From a virus: a stretch of 24,899 bases of DNA. Each line of letters opens with the position of its first letter. Within the stretch, counting starts at the first letter, position 1. A program made the translations under genes and the position numbers. Of the stretch, positions 14,757 to 24,899 are shown in pieces. The notes under the pieces are model-generated. The model worked only from the letters and a program-made list of their open reading frames with translations, made no database searches and was not told the DNA's origin. The DNA is taken from the IMG/VR virus record IMGVR_UViG_3300034284_002621, positions 1 through 24,899 of that record; one strand, 5' to 3'.

Positions 14757-15053
14757 TTACTTCGGGGAGTTGCCGCTCACATTGCGGCCCTTCGGCGGCG
14801 TGCCGCCGTGGGCCGAGGTGAACGGGCTCTTCTCGCAGCCGGCGCGGCCACCGCTCTTTCGGGCCTTGCGACCCGCGTGATGAGCAGCCTTGCCTTCCAC
14901 CGTGCCGGCGTGCTTCTTGGCTCGGCCGCCGCGCTTGCGCTCCTCGGCCTCGTCCTGCACATTCGACTGGTAGGTGTAGCGCAGGTTCTTCTTGGAAGAG
15001 TCCTGCGCCGCCTCGTTTACGCCACCACTGGCGCGATGCTTGCGACCTTTCAT
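14757..15053 (-). CDS. Small basic RGG-motif phage protein, 98 aa
   Basis: ATG 15053 is preceded by AGGGGA and lies 16 bases after the major capsid stop. The protein is highly basic (Lys, Arg, His) and glycine-rich, beginning MKGRKHRASGGVNEAAQD. It contains KRGGRAKK (residues 40-47), KARKSGGRAG (63-72) and a conserved-looking end around NPF-like SPFTSAHGGTPPKGRNV. I recall close relatives next to capsid genes in other environmental phages; their function is not established. Its xGG[KR] motifs are shared with the 524-residue protein encoded at 19557-21131. Predicted disordered, it could bind DNA or line the capsid interior. Being in the capsid transcription unit, before the terminator, suggests high expression. 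Confidence 0.83.
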   Translation of the reverse strand: MKGRKHRASGGVNEAAQDSSKKNLRYTYQSNVQDEAEERKRGGRAKKHAGTVEGKAAHHAGRKARKSGGRAGCEKSPFTSAHGGTPPKGRNVSGNSPK

Positions 15054-15069
15054 GTGTGTTCCCCTGAGG

Positions 15070-15981
15070 TTACGACGGGAAGGACCCGAAGATGCTGCGC
15101 CAGTTGTAGTAGCCGAACGAGTACCGCTCGTAGCCCTTCACGAGCAGGTTGTCCGTGACGAAATCGACCTGCATGTCCGTCTCGAACTTGACGCGCTCCA
15201 TGTAGGAGAGACCGTCGATGTTCGTGAGCAGGAACCACGCGGACGCTGAGGTCAGGAAGTCGTTGACCATGTAGCCTTCCGGCAGGCCGCCGGCGGTGGT
15301 CAGGATGGCGTTCACATCGTTGTCCGCGGTGCCCGGGCGAAGTTCCGTCTTCGTCAGACGGATGGCCGTGGGCTCGAGCGCCGGCGGAACGACCAACTTG
15401 CGGCCGCGCGCGAAGACCTTGAGCCCGGCTTGGTCGCGGAAGTTGGTGCGGATGGAAATCATCGCGTTCAGCAGCGTGGCTTCGTTGAGTTCCACATCAA
15501 CCGCGGGACGGTTCGAGACCGTGCCGCCATCGATGGGATGGTTCGTCGCGATGAGCGCGACGCCGTCACCACCGAACGACGCGTTGTAGGTCGTGGCGGT
15601 GTTCAGGATGTTCGCGCCGTAGATTTCCTTGGTCTGCTGAAACGACTCGATGAGGCCGAGGTTCGACGGGTGGAACTGCGTCTTGTACAGGTTGTCGTCG
15701 ATGGCCTTGCGGGTGATGGCGTAGCCAAGAGCGATTTCGTTGTGCTCTTGGTTGTACACGAACCGCTGACCCGAGTTGTTGTCGAACGAGGTCTGCGCAC
15801 CCTCGGTCTTCAACTGCGCGAGTCCGAGGTACCGCATCTCCGCCGTGCGCTCGAGAGCGAGTTTCGAGTCGTGCTTGGTGAAGATTTTGTCGTACTGAGA
15901 CGGAATCATCTCGTACTTGCCTTCGATTCCACGGAGACCGGGGAGCAGAAGGTCCTTGATTGCACTCAGATTGACTGCCAT
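15070..15981 (-). CDS. Major capsid protein, Mu gpT-like (HK97 fold), 303 aa
   Basis: ATG 15981 has a strong Shine-Dalgarno (AAGGAG). The length, 303 residues, fits Mu gpT-type major head proteins. The N-terminal half includes GKYEMIPSQYDKIFTKHDS and YAITRKAIDDNLY. The middle holds a G-loop-like segment followed by TNHPIDGGTVSN. The second half shows ARGRKLVVPPALEPTAIRL (residues 191-209), the region preceding the P-domain strands in this family, then VNDFLTSASAWFLLTN and the ending YYNWRSIFGSFPS. No cleavable long N-terminal delta domain is visible, consistent with a separate scaffold protein encoded upstream. It shares a promoter with the 199-residue head protein before it. The capsid assignment is strong; the exact family rests on recognition by eye. 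Confidence 0.92.
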   Translation of the reverse strand: MAVNLSAIKDLLLPGLRGIEGKYEMIPSQYDKIFTKHDSKLALERTAEMRYLGLAQLKTEGAQTSFDNNSGQRFVYNQEHNEIALGYAITRKAIDDNLYKTQFHPSNLGLIESFQQTKEIYGANILNTATTYNASFGGDGVALIATNHPIDGGTVSNRPAVDVELNEATLLNAMISIRTNFRDQAGLKVFARGRKLVVPPALEPTAIRLTKTELRPGTADNDVNAILTTAGGLPEGYMVNDFLTSASAWFLLTNIDGLSYMERVKFETDMQVDFVTDNLLVKGYERYSFGYYNWRSIFGSFPS

Positions 15982-19556: not shown

Positions 19557-21131
19557 TCAGCCCTTGCGCTTCTGGATTTCGGCCTTCTCGAGACGACCGA
19601 GGCCACTGCCGGCGCCTGCATCCATATCCGCGGCCGACCGGTACGACCGATGGCCCGGCTTGCCCACAGTGCGGCCGCCGCGCTTGCGAGGCATCGGCAT
19701 GCCCGGAGGACCGCCCATGCCCGGAGGACCGCCCATCAGCCCCGGCGGCGGACCGCCCATGGGGCCCGGAGGAGGCGGCATAGGCCCGCCCGGGGGGAGG
19801 CCCGGGGGTGGCATGCCGGCGCCCGGAGGCGGCCCCATCATGGCCGGAGGAGGCGCTCCGATGGGGGGCTTCTTGGGCTCGGTGTTGATGATGACATTCA
19901 CATGGGTGCCCTTCGTGCGACCGCCAGTCTTGCGCGCAAGACGCCCGCCAGTCGGCCGGGTGCCCTGCATCGTGCCGTCGAGGGCCTTGCCGCCCGTCTT
20001 GCGCATCAGGCGCTCGTCGTCAGGGTTTTCCATGGCGAGGCGCGCAAGGCGGGAGGCTGCCATACGGGCCGGCCGCGCGCCGATGTCACCCGGCATCGTG
20101 TCCATGTCTTCCTCGCGGCGGAACGGGTTCTTCCGGTCGCCCTTGCGGCGGGACCGCATCACGCGCGAGTCCTTCATGCCGGCGGGGATGCCGCCGGTCG
20201 CAAGTTTCGTCGGCTTGGCGCCGGGATGCTTCGCCCTTTCGTGCTTGTGGACCGCCGCGCTGACGAGCGCCTTGCCGCCGCGGCGCCACCCCTTGCGGTT
20301 GAGTTCCGCCTTCGCAGTGCTGTGCGCGTCGTCAACATCGTCCGTGTGATGGTCCGAATCGCTTCCCAACGGGCTGCCATCGGCGCGGTAAAACTTCACG
20401 CGATACTCACCCCAGTCACGGTCTTTGTAGACCTTGGCTTGGCGGCCATTCTCATCCGTGTGCGTGCGAATCAATCGCAGAGACGGCTTCGGCTCATCGC
20501 TGCGGCCACCAGACGCGCGCGCGGCGCGGCCGCCGCGCTTCAGGCCGCCGGTGTGTTTCTTGCCTTCGCGCTGCTCGTTCGCCTCCTTCTGATTGAGGTT
20601 GGCAAGGCCATCGGCGCTCAGCGCCTTGCCGCCGGAGTTGTAGCCGCCGCGAAGAAGGCGATGGATTTTCGCCGCCTCACCCTTGCTGATTTTCCGTCCG
20701 CTGCGATTCGACGAGTCGATGGCCTTGTCCACAGCCTCCTTGCCGTAGCGCGGATTCGAGCCCTTGCCGTAACCCATCTTGTCGGCCATGTCGAAGATGG
20801 AGTTCATCAGGTTCTTCGGGCCGCCGGCCTGCTTGACCTCGTCTCGCTCCATGCGGTCTTCCGGAGAGTTGTCCGTCTGCCCGCCCGTCGCCAACTTGAT
20901 TGGCTTCTTGCGCGGCTTTCGACCCATGTGGGATACCTTATCGCCGTGGACCTTGCCGCCGCGCTTGTAGGCTCGACGCGAGACAGGGCGCATGCCCGTC
21001 TTCACATGAGCGTCGAGCGGGTCAGAGCCCTCGACAGGGTAACCAGAGGCATCGACGCTCTTCGGCGACTTCATCAGCCGCGCGATTTTGTCCTTCATGC
21101 CCTTGCGGGCTTTCTTTGCAGTTTCGTACAT
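19557..21131 (-). CDS. Basic, low-complexity protein with many xGG[KR] motifs, 524 aa
   Basis: ATG 21131 is preceded by AGAGGAAC. The protein is strongly basic. It has nine motifs of the form [RST]-G-G-[KR], at residues 57-60, 166-169, 199-202, 207-210, 284-287, 379-382, 394-397, 402-405 and 484-487, and two KLATGG copies (79-84, 309-314). A small folded-looking segment at residues 217-276 (QAKVYKDRDWGEYRVKFYRA, then a DSDHHTDDVDDA acidic turn) is reminiscent of a short domain seen in other environmental phages. Residues 420-480 are a Pro/Gly/Met-rich tract (PPGMGGPPGMPMP). No enzyme motif is recognised. It may bind DNA or act as an internal virion protein. It is the last gene before a terminator and follows three other poorly known genes. 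Confidence 0.82.
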   Translation of the reverse strand: MYETAKKARKGMKDKIARLMKSPKSVDASGYPVEGSDPLDAHVKTGMRPVSRRAYKRGGKVHGDKVSHMGRKPRKKPIKLATGGQTDNSPEDRMERDEVKQAGGPKNLMNSIFDMADKMGYGKGSNPRYGKEAVDKAIDSSNRSGRKISKGEAAKIHRLLRGGYNSGGKALSADGLANLNQKEANEQREGKKHTGGLKRGGRAARASGGRSDEPKPSLRLIRTHTDENGRQAKVYKDRDWGEYRVKFYRADGSPLGSDSDHHTDDVDDAHSTAKAELNRKGWRRGGKALVSAAVHKHERAKHPGAKPTKLATGGIPAGMKDSRVMRSRRKGDRKNPFRREEDMDTMPGDIGARPARMAASRLARLAMENPDDERLMRKTGGKALDGTMQGTRPTGGRLARKTGGRTKGTHVNVIINTEPKKPPIGAPPPAMMGPPPGAGMPPPGLPPGGPMPPPPGPMGGPPPGLMGGPPGMGGPPGMPMPRKRGGRTVGKPGHRSYRSAADMDAGAGSGLGRLEKAEIQKRKG

Positions 21132-21149: not shown

Positions 21150-22148
21150 TCAGGGCTCGTTAAAGCCGTCAGAAAGATTTGCCAATGAACCGCTAGGTTG
21201 AATTCTAGCGGGTTCTTCGTAACCAACAGGCAGCGCCCTTGAAAGTAACATTTGCCCAAGGCTTCCGGGGCTTCCGGCCTGCGAATTCAGAGGCCCTCTT
21301 GTCGCTTCCTGCATTCCAAGCGCGTTCTGTTCTTGCCATCTTTTTTCCATCGCCGCCCGCTCATCAGCGGGGAGAGCATGCATGTCGATAGGACCCTGAC
21401 CACCAAGTTGGTAGCGCCCGCTCATGCGCTCTTCTTCGGTCAGCGGCGGCCGACTGTCAACCGGCGACGGGAACGGGGACGGGTTGTAGTCGACCAACGA
21501 TTGCTGCGCCATCTGTTCGGATTTGTTGCCCCGGTACATGTGGTCCGTCACCGGCATAATCGTCTCGCGCGGCTCGGTCTCTTCTCGAGGAGGCACTGCG
21601 GGCGCGATGGCCGGTGCAGGCGTAGTGGCCGGCGGCCCCATCTCGACCCTCTGCGGAGACCGTCCGCCGGGCATGAATGGCTGCGGCCCGCCGCCCGGGC
21701 TCGGCGGACCGATTGGCAACGGCCTTGGGCCCGTAGGCATCGGCTGCCGTTGATTGCCGGGGTTCATGGGCATCGGTTGGAAGCCCTTTCCACCGCCAGA
21801 CACAGGCGGTTGGAACGCCGGAAACTGATAGGAGGGCCGCGCCATTGGGGTCGGCATTTGGCCGGCCATCTGGCCCTGAATACTCGGGTAGAAGAACTGC
21901 GGGCGCGCAAATTGCGCCGGCATGAAATTCATCGGCGCGTACTGAGCCTGATGACGCTGAGGGGGCATTGACTGGAAGCCCTTGCCGCTGCCGGCCTGCG
22001 AGTACCCGGGGGAGTAACCGCCTCCGAATCCGCCGAACCCTCCAAAGCCACCCAACCCGCCGCCATAGCCGCCCATGCTGCCGCCATAGCCGCCAAACTG
22101 GCTGCCGGGCATGTAGGTTGTGGTCGGAAATGTGGTTGAGCCGCCCAT
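21150..22148 (-). CDS. Gly/Pro/Met/Gln-rich low-complexity protein, 332 aa
   Basis: ATG 22148 is chosen because GGAGATAG ends just upstream and the preceding gene stops at 22151; the longer frame to 22274 overlaps that gene. The first 70 residues are Gly/Tyr/Phe/Ser-rich (YGGSMGGYGGGLGGFGGFGG). Residues 75-190 are Pro/Gln/Met/Phe-rich (PMNFMPAQFARPQFFYPSIQ). The C-terminal half has short charged segments (PREETEPRETIMPVTDHMYR, then MSGRYQLGGQGPIDMHALPA). I recognise no domain. Such composition suggests an intrinsically disordered or linker-type virion protein. The conserved-looking C-terminal half may be the functional part. It sits between the four-Cys protein and the RGG protein, in the same transcription unit. 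Function is unknown. Confidence 0.8.
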   Translation of the reverse strand: MGGSTTFPTTTYMPGSQFGGYGGSMGGYGGGLGGFGGFGGFGGGYSPGYSQAGSGKGFQSMPPQRHQAQYAPMNFMPAQFARPQFFYPSIQGQMAGQMPTPMARPSYQFPAFQPPVSGGGKGFQPMPMNPGNQRQPMPTGPRPLPIGPPSPGGGPQPFMPGGRSPQRVEMGPPATTPAPAIAPAVPPREETEPRETIMPVTDHMYRGNKSEQMAQQSLVDYNPSPFPSPVDSRPPLTEEERMSGRYQLGGQGPIDMHALPADERAAMEKRWQEQNALGMQEATRGPLNSQAGSPGSLGQMLLSRALPVGYEEPARIQPSGSLANLSDGFNEP

Positions 22149-22150
22149 GG

Positions 22151-24145
22151 CTATCTCCTGCGGGCCGAGCCCATCATAGCCGGAACTGTGCCGAGTCCAC
22201 CGGTTATTTGCAAGGCGCGCTGCACGGCTCGATTGGACGGCGCTCGAGCCGCGTTGGTCTCCGCCTCCTCCCAAGTCTCCGGCCGGTGGGCGTAGTGCAT
22301 CTGCACCGCAAGGCTCTGCGACGGCATGCCATCGTGCGCCTCGTCTAGCACGCCGTGTCCAACCGCGCCTCCGTAGGCTCGGAACTTGACCGTCTGCGGG
22401 GCGGCGTAGGGAGTGTTGGCCGCCTTCTCTTGCTCGTGCGGAGCATCGATTTCGTACTCGCCATTGTTCTTCCGCGCATGCTCGAGATGGCCATCATCGA
22501 CATGGTGCGTGAACTCCGACTCGTGCGCGTCATTGCTAGTCGAAGTCGTCGGCGTAGTCATCAAAATTGCGCCGGCAACTTTGCCGTTCTTCGTCTTGAA
22601 TCTTTTGCGCGGAAGATACTCTTCATCGCGGAATCGGGAATCTGTCGGCACCATGTGAGGAGTGCCGTCCTTGTTTACACCGACTTGCACAAGACGCGGA
22701 TGCAGGATGTGCTGCTTCTGGTAGTCGTAGCGCATGCCATTTCTCACCACATGGCCGTAGTGCGCTTTGTCTGGCGTGGTCGGATTGCCATTGCCGTCGA
22801 AATGACCCTCGCCGCCTTCGTTCTGCTCCGCAGTAGAAAGCAACTGCACCTTTCTCGGAGCAGACCAATACTTGGCGTACTTGACGGCTTTCTCGATGTT
22901 TTTTGCGTGGTCAGAATCGCGCTTGGCATCGATGACCATGTACGAGTTCTTCGGCGGCGTCAGGTTGCCCTGCTCGTTGACCAAGTCCTTATCGCGATTT
23001 TCCATCGCGGTGATGGTAGCCCTGACTCTTGAAGCGTCTCGCTGATAGTTGTCCCTGACCGAGTGGAACACCTTCTTCTCTCTTCCGTTTTCGTCCGCCC
23101 GAACGCCTCTTTTCACTTTTGGGCCCGAGTTGGAATAGGTCACATACCAACCGTTTTCCGGGTCGTTGAGTTCGTTGGTCTTGCCATATGAATTTCCGAT
23201 GATGGCCGGCAAGCCTTTCTCAGCGCGCTGCTTGTTGAGCGTTGCAACCACTTCTCTGGAAGAACGGTCTGACTCATCGACGATGTTCGGCCTGAAAAGA
23301 ACGATACGGCCTTTTTTGTCTGCGCGCTCCGCTGCGTTTCTCAACGAACCGATGTGCGCAAGAATCCAATCTTGAGTCATCTTCGGGTCGTGCTTTGCCT
23401 GCGCATGACATGCCCTGCGAATCGCTGAGTCTGCGTACTGAGACTCTGCATTGGGCGCAAAACAGGTTCCCTTAATCGTGTCTACGACGCCATCCGCACT
23501 GACGCCGCCGCCACACCCAGTCGTCTGCCCCGGGCATGTATTCAACACAACCTGCTTCTGGTTTGGCCCGTGCCCAGAAGTGTACAGCGCGTGCCCGGCT
23601 ACGCCTTTCGAGCCATACGCATCAAACTTCCTTCCCTGAGCGTCTTCTTCGTAGTTGATGGTGTCGAGTTTGGCGCTTTCATCGAGCGTGTCTGACTTGT
23701 GACTGATGTGCCGAGCCGCGCGCAGTCTTTCCAAGGCGGCCGCTTCAGCGGCCCTCTGCTCAGCCACAGGCTTTGCAAAATGAGACTGCATTGCCTGTTT
23801 GTGCGCTTTCTCGATTTCCCCCAAGGTCAGAGGGTCTCTGTTTTCGGCGCCGTATACTTGCGCGCGATAGCGGTTTATTTCACGCATCCCTATAGAGCGC
23901 GAACTTCCAGTCCACATGTGACGCGGAACGACGATTGCTTTCACTCCCGCCGGGCCCTGCGCTTTAAACTTGATTCGGTTTGGGTTGTCGGTTGTCTCAA
24001 TGTTTGCATCCGCAGGATGCGAATATTCGTCCTTGCCTTCACCGCCAACGACCGGCGCGACATCTTTGGCCACACCAACAGGGCTATTCGTGACGGATTT
24101 GGCGACGCTCAGCGCCTGCTCGATTGCGCTCTTCGGCTTTTTCAT
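22151..24145 (-). CDS. Four-cysteine phage protein, distantly Gp88-like, 664 aa
   Basis: ATG 24145 overlaps the preceding TGA (ATGA) with AAGGAG upstream. The N-terminal 200 residues include a helical region (EKAHKQAMQSHFAKPVAEQR). Exactly four cysteines occur: Cys204 (NTCPGQ), Cys211 (TGCGGG), Cys228 (GTCFAP) and Cys246 (RACHAQ). They form a CPGxTxxC...C..C cluster reminiscent of phage Gp88-type proteins, likely a metal or iron-sulphur site. After it come WILAHIGSLRNAAERADKKG and RIVLFRPNIVDESDRSSREV, resembling an alpha/beta core, then YGKTNELNDPENGWYVTYSN. Residues 400-520 hold a second possible domain (SYMVIDAKRDSDHAKNIEKA). The C-terminus (SNRAVQRALQIT) resembles that of the preceding protein. 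No known activity can be assigned. It is one of the largest proteins in the window and its role is an open question. Confidence 0.85.
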   Translation of the reverse strand: MKKPKSAIEQALSVAKSVTNSPVGVAKDVAPVVGGEGKDEYSHPADANIETTDNPNRIKFKAQGPAGVKAIVVPRHMWTGSSRSIGMREINRYRAQVYGAENRDPLTLGEIEKAHKQAMQSHFAKPVAEQRAAEAAALERLRAARHISHKSDTLDESAKLDTINYEEDAQGRKFDAYGSKGVAGHALYTSGHGPNQKQVVLNTCPGQTTGCGGGVSADGVVDTIKGTCFAPNAESQYADSAIRRACHAQAKHDPKMTQDWILAHIGSLRNAAERADKKGRIVLFRPNIVDESDRSSREVVATLNKQRAEKGLPAIIGNSYGKTNELNDPENGWYVTYSNSGPKVKRGVRADENGREKKVFHSVRDNYQRDASRVRATITAMENRDKDLVNEQGNLTPPKNSYMVIDAKRDSDHAKNIEKAVKYAKYWSAPRKVQLLSTAEQNEGGEGHFDGNGNPTTPDKAHYGHVVRNGMRYDYQKQHILHPRLVQVGVNKDGTPHMVPTDSRFRDEEYLPRKRFKTKNGKVAGAILMTTPTTSTSNDAHESEFTHHVDDGHLEHARKNNGEYEIDAPHEQEKAANTPYAAPQTVKFRAYGGAVGHGVLDEAHDGMPSQSLAVQMHYAHRPETWEEAETNAARAPSNRAVQRALQITGGLGTVPAMMGSARRR

Positions 24146-24899
24146 TTTGACTCCTTGGCAATCATCATTGCTCGACGGATTGCCTTGTCGCTGTCTTCAA
24201 CCATTCCGCCTCGATTCAGGCGTTCTACGATGCGGACCTTCTTCTCTTCGCCCGGGAATACGACGAAATTGCGGGTCCCATCGCCATTTCGCCGGCTGCT
24301 TGCATCCAGATACTTGATTCCCGGAATTCCACGACGCGCCAACTCTTCACTTGCCGCCTTGCCGAATTGACCTTTTCCGGCAAGCGCATCTGAACTTGCA
24401 ACAAGTTCGTAGAGTTTACTGCCTTTGATTTGATGATGTGGTATGCCGACTTTTTCAACGAGTTTTCGAGTGTCTGCGTCCCAGATTTCCGATTCCATCA
24501 GGTCTTTGAACACTTTCTGGACATGTTCCGACTGCTCACCAAGAGGCCTGTCCCAGTCGAGCATCTTGTTGACGATTTCAGGGTGCAATTTGACCCTGTA
24601 AAGAAACCCTTTCGGCTTCATCGCCTCGATGCCTTCGCTGTACGCCCTGTGCTTGTCTCCTAGCGACCTGAGTGTGGCGCTTTCCTCCGCCGATAAGTTT
24701 GGGCCGCCACTTGTAGTTTTGAACAACTTCCCCCTCAGGATGTCGTAAGTCTTCTGCTCACTTGTCGTCAGAGCGTCAGGTAATTTTTTCCCCTCCCACC
24801 ACGAGGGGTCGTCACCCAATCGACGAGACAACTGGTCTTTGTAGTGCCGGCCAATGCCCTGCGCCTCGGCCAGATAAGTCCCATACCCGAAGGCATCAT
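24142..24899 (-). CDS. ADP-ribosyltransferase-like polyvalent protein, C-terminal part (runs off right edge)
   Basis: The frame is open to the right edge; 251 residues are visible and the apparent TTG start at 24831 is only internal. The segment AFGYGTYLAEAQGIGRHY (from 24894 down) matches the G-x-G-x-Y-[LF]-A-[ED] block of the ART domain found in phage polyvalent proteins. It is followed at a typical distance by LYRVKLHPEIVNKMLDWDRP and LGEQSEHVQ, and then AASEELARRGIPGIKYLDAS and DGTRNFVVF. These are successive landmarks of that family. Such domains are part of very large multi-domain proteins thought to be delivered with phage DNA to modify host targets. Catalytic residues partly lie outside the window. 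The C-terminus (RGGMVEDSDKAIRRAMMIAK) shares a tail motif with the next protein. Activity is inferred. Confidence 0.8.
   Translation of the reverse strand, partial: DAFGYGTYLAEAQGIGRHYKDQLSRRLGDDPSWWEGKKLPDALTTSEQKTYDILRGKLFKTTSGGPNLSAEESATLRSLGDKHRAYSEGIEAMKPKGFLYRVKLHPEIVNKMLDWDRPLGEQSEHVQKVFKDLMESEIWDADTRKLVEKVGIPHHQIKGSKLYELVASSDALAGKGQFGKAASEELARRGIPGIKYLDASSRRNGDGTRNFVVFPGEEKKVRIVERLNRGGMVEDSDKAIRRAMMIAKESK

What the first reader, a model, noticed from the sequence alone, without database searches (positions are those of the whole stretch)
22151..24145. Large protein with exactly four cysteines arranged as a CPGxTxxC cluster, possibly a new relative of Gp88
In 664 residues the only cysteines are 204, 211, 228 and 246, all within 43 residues and flanked by Gly/Pro. 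This strongly suggests a single bound metal or Fe-S cluster. The CPGQTTGC element recalls Gp88-type phage proteins, but the long N- and C-terminal regions are not explained. The function of this family is not established. It is coupled by ATGA overlap to the ART polyvalent gene, so the two may act together.
Basis: partly seen in the sequence, partly recalled or inferred. Interest (0 to 1): 0.65.

Follow-up and report, generated by a model that had tools for sequence, protein, structure and literature searches.

The report
Three-cysteine Gp88-like core, phage head genes
A large phage protein made next to the genes for the DNA-packaging portal carries a strictly conserved three-cysteine site of the Gp88 family, probably holding an iron-sulphur cluster, and is joined in related phages to ever-changing effector-like domains, suggesting that it belongs to a package injected with the phage DNA.

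Summary
The ORF is real (minus strand, 664 aa; only Cys 204, 211, 228 and 246). In 112 aligned sequences (83 distinct) Cys204, 211 and 228 are invariant, while position 246 is Cys in only 29. The site is C-x6-C-x16-CFA: the Gp88 three-cysteine motif (C-x6-C-x3-CYA in D29 gp88) with an extra loop. An undisputed Gp88 protein of cyanophage B23 carries a similar loop. Pfam GP88 matches all 30 relatives scanned, and a fold search with the AlphaFold model returns Gp88 proteins (E to 1e-11). Where flanks are held, the gene lies in the terminase/portal region, and in most relatives its core follows variable N-terminal parts (up to ~1350 aa), several with ART, ASCH, LPD23 or PcfJ domains. In the window's lineage the order is portal, ART protein, Gp88 protein, with 4-base overlaps; in relative L036 the last two are one ORF. 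Best reading: the constant module of a phage 'polyvalent' protein, with a three-Cys metal site, probably radical-SAM-like [4Fe-4S] (inferred, unproven). The core is 61-67% identical between two phage lineages whose terminase, portal and capsid proteins are only 27-35% identical.

The parts
22151..24145 (-). Gp88-like protein, 664 aa (finding)
   Evidence: Open reading frame with 112 aligned homologues; Pfam GP88; fold match to Gp88 proteins
22385..24010 (-). Folded core, residues 46-587
   Evidence: Mostly pLDDT above 70; segments 1-45, 588-606 and 621-664 below 50
23462..23536 (-). Three-cysteine site C204-x6-C211-x16-C228-F-A (residues 204-228)
   Evidence: All three Cys invariant in 112 of 112 sequences
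23465..23512 (-). Loop between Cys211 and Cys228 (residues 212-227), 13 residues longer than in D29 gp88
   Evidence: Comparison with D29 gp88; a similar loop in cyanophage B23 gp236
23408..23410 (-). Cys246, not conserved
   Evidence: Cys in 29 of 112; otherwise A, G, S or T
23174..23299 (-). Blocks LFRPNIVDESD and IIGNSYGKTN (residues 283-324), counterparts of LFRIHWDGDFFS and FWAYTR of D29 gp88
   Evidence: Profile alignment; conserved columns
24041..24046 (-). Gly34-Gly35, before the core
   Evidence: Invariant in 30, at least 90% in 48 sequences; low-confidence stretch
22367..22372 (-). Gly592-Gly593, after the core
   Evidence: Invariant in 48 sequences; low-confidence stretch
24142..24145 (-). 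ATGA overlap with the upstream gene
   Evidence: Sequence
24142..24897 (-). C-terminal 251 residues of the upstream ART-bearing gene (649 aa in L002), cut by the window end
   Evidence: L002 is 99.7% identical over the 1919-base overlap and holds the whole gene; ART-PolyVal 29.7 bits, cut-off 31.2, in its first half
19557..21131 (-). Second head-region protein with the GG motif
   Evidence: Four motif copies, shuffles reach this with P 0.0015; phrog_7884
15070..15981 (-). Major head protein
   Evidence: phrog_371, E 3e-11

Best explanation
The ORF encodes the constant C-terminal module of a phage polyvalent protein. In this phage the polyvalent protein is split into an ART-bearing gene and the Gp88 gene, joined by a 4-base ATGA overlap. 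SHOWN: homology to Gp88; an invariant three-cysteine (not four-cysteine) site; location in the terminase/portal region; N-terminal partners that vary and often match ADP-ribosyltransferase domains. INFERRED: the three cysteines sit in the loop after the first strand of a beta/alpha barrel and bind a [4Fe-4S] cluster with one open iron site, as in radical-SAM enzymes. The barrel would be an enzyme making a radical- or redox-type modification. The protein would be loaded into the head near the portal and enter the host with the DNA, where ART and Gp88 modules modify host molecules at the start of infection.
For: Three Cys invariant in 112/112. GP88 profile in all 30 relatives, with none in 14 control genomes. 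Fold matches to Gp88 proteins, E 1e-11 and 2e-8. B23 gp236, a strong GP88 member, carries a similar loop and CFA..AE..Y. In the models the Cys loop follows a strand and precedes alternating helices and strands. The D29 gp88 model resembles TIM barrels, with spore photoproduct lyase and viperin among weak matches. Terminase/portal neighbourhood in about 100 loci. Variable N-terminal parts with ART-PolyVal, ASCH, LPD23, PcfJ. Phage polyvalent proteins of portal-terminase phages are argued to be packaged (PMC5512222).
Against: No significant match to any radical-SAM protein by sequence or fold. The RxHxxGD and Y(T/S)(R/K) motifs of canonical Gp88 are altered, so activity may have changed. Cys-Cys distances not measured. 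No evidence of packaging in virions. Pfam finds no ART in the part of the upstream gene inside the window.
Confidence: 0.45

Rival explanations
1. The three cysteines, with a nearby invariant histidine or aspartate, bind zinc or another single metal. The module is a metal-stabilised enzyme or binding domain rather than an Fe-S protein.
For: His252, Asp253 and His264 are invariant close to the Cys site; cysteine spacing is unlike the usual CxxxCxxC of radical-SAM proteins.
Against: No fourth ligand is identified; the related Gp88 and DUF5131 proteins keep a compact three-Cys motif.
Confidence: 0.25
2. The Gp88 core is a head-assembly or portal-associated structural module that anchors the variable effector domains in the virion, without catalysis of its own.
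For: Location beside portal or terminase; shares a GG motif with a second head-region protein; the core is the constant part and the N-terminal part varies.
Against: Many invariant polar residues as in enzymes; stand-alone Gp88 proteins of D29 and StarPlatinum lie among non-structural genes.
Confidence: 0.2
3. The cysteines hold no metal: they form a disulphide or act as a catalytic thiol, and the clustering is incidental.
For: Only three of the four are conserved; clusters of cysteines need not bind metal.
Against: Three invariant cysteines with the order and flanking residues (CPG, CFA/CYA) of a family-wide motif in a protein expected to act inside cells.
Confidence: 0.08

Closest known systems
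Gene product 88 family, Pfam GP88 (PF17338), e.g. mycobacteriophage D29 gp88 and cyanophage B23 gp236
   Same: TCPG..-C-...-C(F/Y)A three-cysteine motif; LFR and Y.K blocks in the same order; fold match to Gp88 proteins
   Different: 664 aa instead of about 240; 13 extra residues between Cys 2 and Cys 3; RxHxxGD and Y(T/S)(R/K) altered; no second Cys group C...CxxCxxC; located in the terminase/portal region
DUF5131 (Pfam PF07505, Gp37/Gp68 proteins)
   Same: C-x6-C-x2-CYAE motif; its members also score above the GP88 cut-off; weak fold match to the window model (E 0.057)
   Different: Different spacing; the window protein does not match DUF5131 in Pfam
Phage-type polyvalent proteins (Iyer et al. 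2017, PMC5512222)
   Same: Large head-region proteins with ART-PolyVal, LPD23 and other variable domains in portal-terminase phages
   Different: The paper does not mention Gp88; here the Gp88 core is the constant part and in this phage is a separate gene
Radical-SAM enzymes (spore photoproduct lyase, viperin)
   Same: Three cysteines in a loop after a first barrel strand, by topology of the models
   Different: No significant sequence or fold match; cysteine spacing unlike the usual CxxxCxxC

Membership tests
GP88 (PF17338) | Profile match at the curated cut-off | tested here: inconclusive
   Window protein 24.1 bits against 24.4; relatives 25.3 to 32.7 bits, above it, in 3 of 4 records, the fourth 22.4
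GP88 (PF17338) | Three cysteines with CPG and C(F/Y)A | tested here: met
   Invariant in 112 of 112, same order as D29 and B23
GP88 (PF17338) | RxHxxGD and Y(T/S)(R/K) motifs | tested here: not met
   RPNVVDETD and SYGKTN in their place
GP88 (PF17338) | Gp88 fold | tested here: met
   Viral models named Gene product 88 at E 1e-11 and 2e-8
Radical SAM superfamily | Three Cys binding [4Fe-4S] | tested here: inconclusive
   Three invariant Cys; cluster not shown
Radical SAM superfamily | Significant sequence or fold match | tested here: not met
   None for the window protein; spore photoproduct lyase only E about 0.2 with D29 gp88
Radical SAM superfamily | SAM binding and cleavage | not testable with these tools
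   Needs biochemistry
Phage-type polyvalent proteins | Several unrelated effector domains in one protein of a portal-terminase phage | tested here: met
   In relatives: ART-PolyVal, ASCH, LPD23, PcfJ upstream of the core, portal and terminase next to it; in this phage split over two genes
Phage-type polyvalent proteins | Packaged in the virion and delivered | not testable with these tools
   Needs virion proteomics

The most novel reading that the evidence does not exclude
The Gp88 core is a virion-carried radical-SAM-type enzyme, delivered with the DNA as the constant partner of interchangeable ADP-ribosyltransferase and other effectors, and it was exchanged between two otherwise distant groups of tailed phages.
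Probability: 0.2. Interest if true: 0.8.

Novelty: new variant of a known kind. Interest (0 to 1): 0.5.

Why it matters
Gp88 is a family with no assigned function that is common in phages (at least 415 relatives in one capped scan). Here it is large, strictly conserved, tied to the terminase/portal genes and coupled to ART-bearing effectors. That context gives a testable hypothesis (an injected Fe-S enzyme) and a precise three-residue target. The core and its variable partners also look like a module whose history differs from that of the head proteins around it.

Tried and rejected
Four-ligand site: rejected, because Cys246 is not conserved. Solved-structure relatives: none by sequence for the window protein or its profile and none significant by fold; the canonical Gp88 profile gave only chance-level matches. 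NCBIfam: no match. Plasmids: no match. Annotated phages: one relative, MW202545. Species genomes: three relatives, all in MAGs, each beside terminase and portal genes. Literature: no paper on the phage Gp88 family or DUF5131 found in the library. Single-sequence profile comparisons of the core with D29 gp88 or B23 gp236 were too weak to stand alone. Recent transfer nested inside the other lineage: not supported, because the window's group forms its own side of the core tree.

Full report
OBSERVATION. The region 22151-24145 is open only on the minus strand and encodes 664 residues from an ATG. Its four cysteines are at 204, 211, 228 and 246. Four residues placed at random in 664 fall within this span about once in a thousand. 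The upstream gene ends in ATGA, overlapping the start by four bases.

CONSERVATION. Relatives were collected from viral contigs, species genomes and one annotated phage, MW202545. In an alignment of 112 sequences (83 distinct) Cys204, 211 and 228 are Cys in every one, and position 246 in 29. The site is therefore C-x6-C-x16-C, with at most three conserved cysteine ligands. The core also holds many invariant polar residues, as in enzymes.

GP88. Pfam GP88 gives the window protein 24.1 bits, just below the cut-off of 24.4, but it matches all 30 relatives scanned (best E 1.6e-7) and passes the cut-off in three of four records. The control run found no match in 14 well-known genomes. Mycobacteriophage D29 gp88 reads CPDATAFCAKVCYA, LFRIHWDGDFFS and FWAYTR. 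Profile alignment matches CPG..C, C(F/Y)A, LFR and YGKTN/YTR in order and places a gap between the second and third cysteine (weak on its own, E 0.012, probability 3.7%). Cyanophage B23 gp236, a 171-bit GP88 member, carries a similar loop and CFAASSEATY, and so bridges the two forms. A fold search of viral models with the AlphaFold model (pLDDT 79) returned proteins named Gene product 88 at E 1e-11 and 2e-8. Two diagnostic Gp88 motifs, RxHxxGD and Y(T/S)(R/K), are altered here, and the second Cys group of D29 gp88 is absent, so this is a divergent branch.

FOLD AND MECHANISM. In both models the Cys loop follows a strand and precedes alternating helices and strands. The D29 gp88 model resembles TIM barrels (best E 9e-3), with the radical-SAM enzymes spore photoproduct lyase and viperin among the non-significant matches. 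The window model has no significant PDB match. DUF5131 proteins share a C-x6-C-x2-CYAE motif and score above the GP88 cut-off. A radical-SAM-like [4Fe-4S] site is the favoured reading by inference only. A zinc site is the main rival.

CONTEXT. L002 is nearly the same phage (99.7% over 1919 bases). It shows a portal gene (phrog_1216, 8e-31), then a 649-aa ART-bearing gene, then the Gp88 gene, each overlapping the next by four bases. In the relative L036 the ART and Gp88 parts are a single 1527-aa ORF directly after the portal gene; only the first ~90 residues and short linkers of its ART part align with the L002 ART protein, so the domains between have been exchanged. In the larger group the order is terminase, variable part plus Gp88 core, portal; in MW202545 the neighbours are confirmed as terminase and portal. 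A few relatives have the core directly after the terminase, with the portal 1.8 to 3.1 kb further on. The N-terminal parts run from none to about 1350 residues and several carry ART-PolyVal, ASCH, LPD23 or PcfJ domains. Iyer et al. 2017 (PMC5512222) described such polyvalent proteins of portal-terminase phages and argued that many are packaged in the capsid. The ART call for the part inside this window is indirect: Pfam finds none there, the first half of the L002 protein scores 29.7 bits against a cut-off of 31.2, and the window part aligns by BLAST with N-terminal parts of L032 and L088, the latter over a stretch overlapping a weak ART-PolyVal match.

A MODULE WITH ITS OWN HISTORY. Between MW202545 and the relatives in the window's group, terminase is 29-31%, portal 27-28% and capsid protein 35% identical (31% for the window itself), yet the Gp88 core is 61-67% identical. 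Within the MW202545 group the core is about as variable as the portal. The core tree puts the window's group on one side with good support (98/94). One old exchange between the two groups, or very unequal rates, would explain this. Recent nested transfer is not supported.

GG MOTIFS. Gly-Gly pairs flank the folded core (34-35 and 592-593) in stretches predicted with low confidence, probably disordered. In relatives a (K/R)-A-x-GG-x-V motif recurs between domains. Among the 68 MW202545 genes scanned only two carry the motif: this one and a second head-region protein. A processing or head-targeting signal is a speculation.

VERDICT. This is a new variant of a known, uncharacterised family, in an informative genomic setting.

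Noticed in passing
window 19557-21131 (-); L035 18808-20157; L038 19205-20728: A second head-region protein repeats the (K/R)-x-GG-x-(V/A/T) motif seen between the domains of the polyvalent/Gp88 ORFs; in MW202545 only these two of the 68 proteins scanned carry it. Could be a processing or head-targeting signal.
   Followed up: partly
L002 2128-4077; window 24142-24897 (-): The full ART gene of this phage may hold two ART-like stretches (the second with WHGTPHEF...FGYGTYLAE, partly inside the window) and repeats a K-A-(I/L)-R-R-A-(L/M)-M-x-A-K motif near its start and end.
   Followed up: partly
window 21150-22148 (-): Gly/Pro-rich protein (about 332 aa) directly after the Gp88 gene, no PHROG match.
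   Followed up: no
window 14760-15137 (-): Small ORF overlapping the major head protein gene, with two RKxGGRA motifs.
   Followed up: no
L131, L132 (genomes G060, G195): DUF5131 proteins score above the GP88 cut-off, which suggests that the two Pfam families belong to one superfamily.
   Followed up: partly
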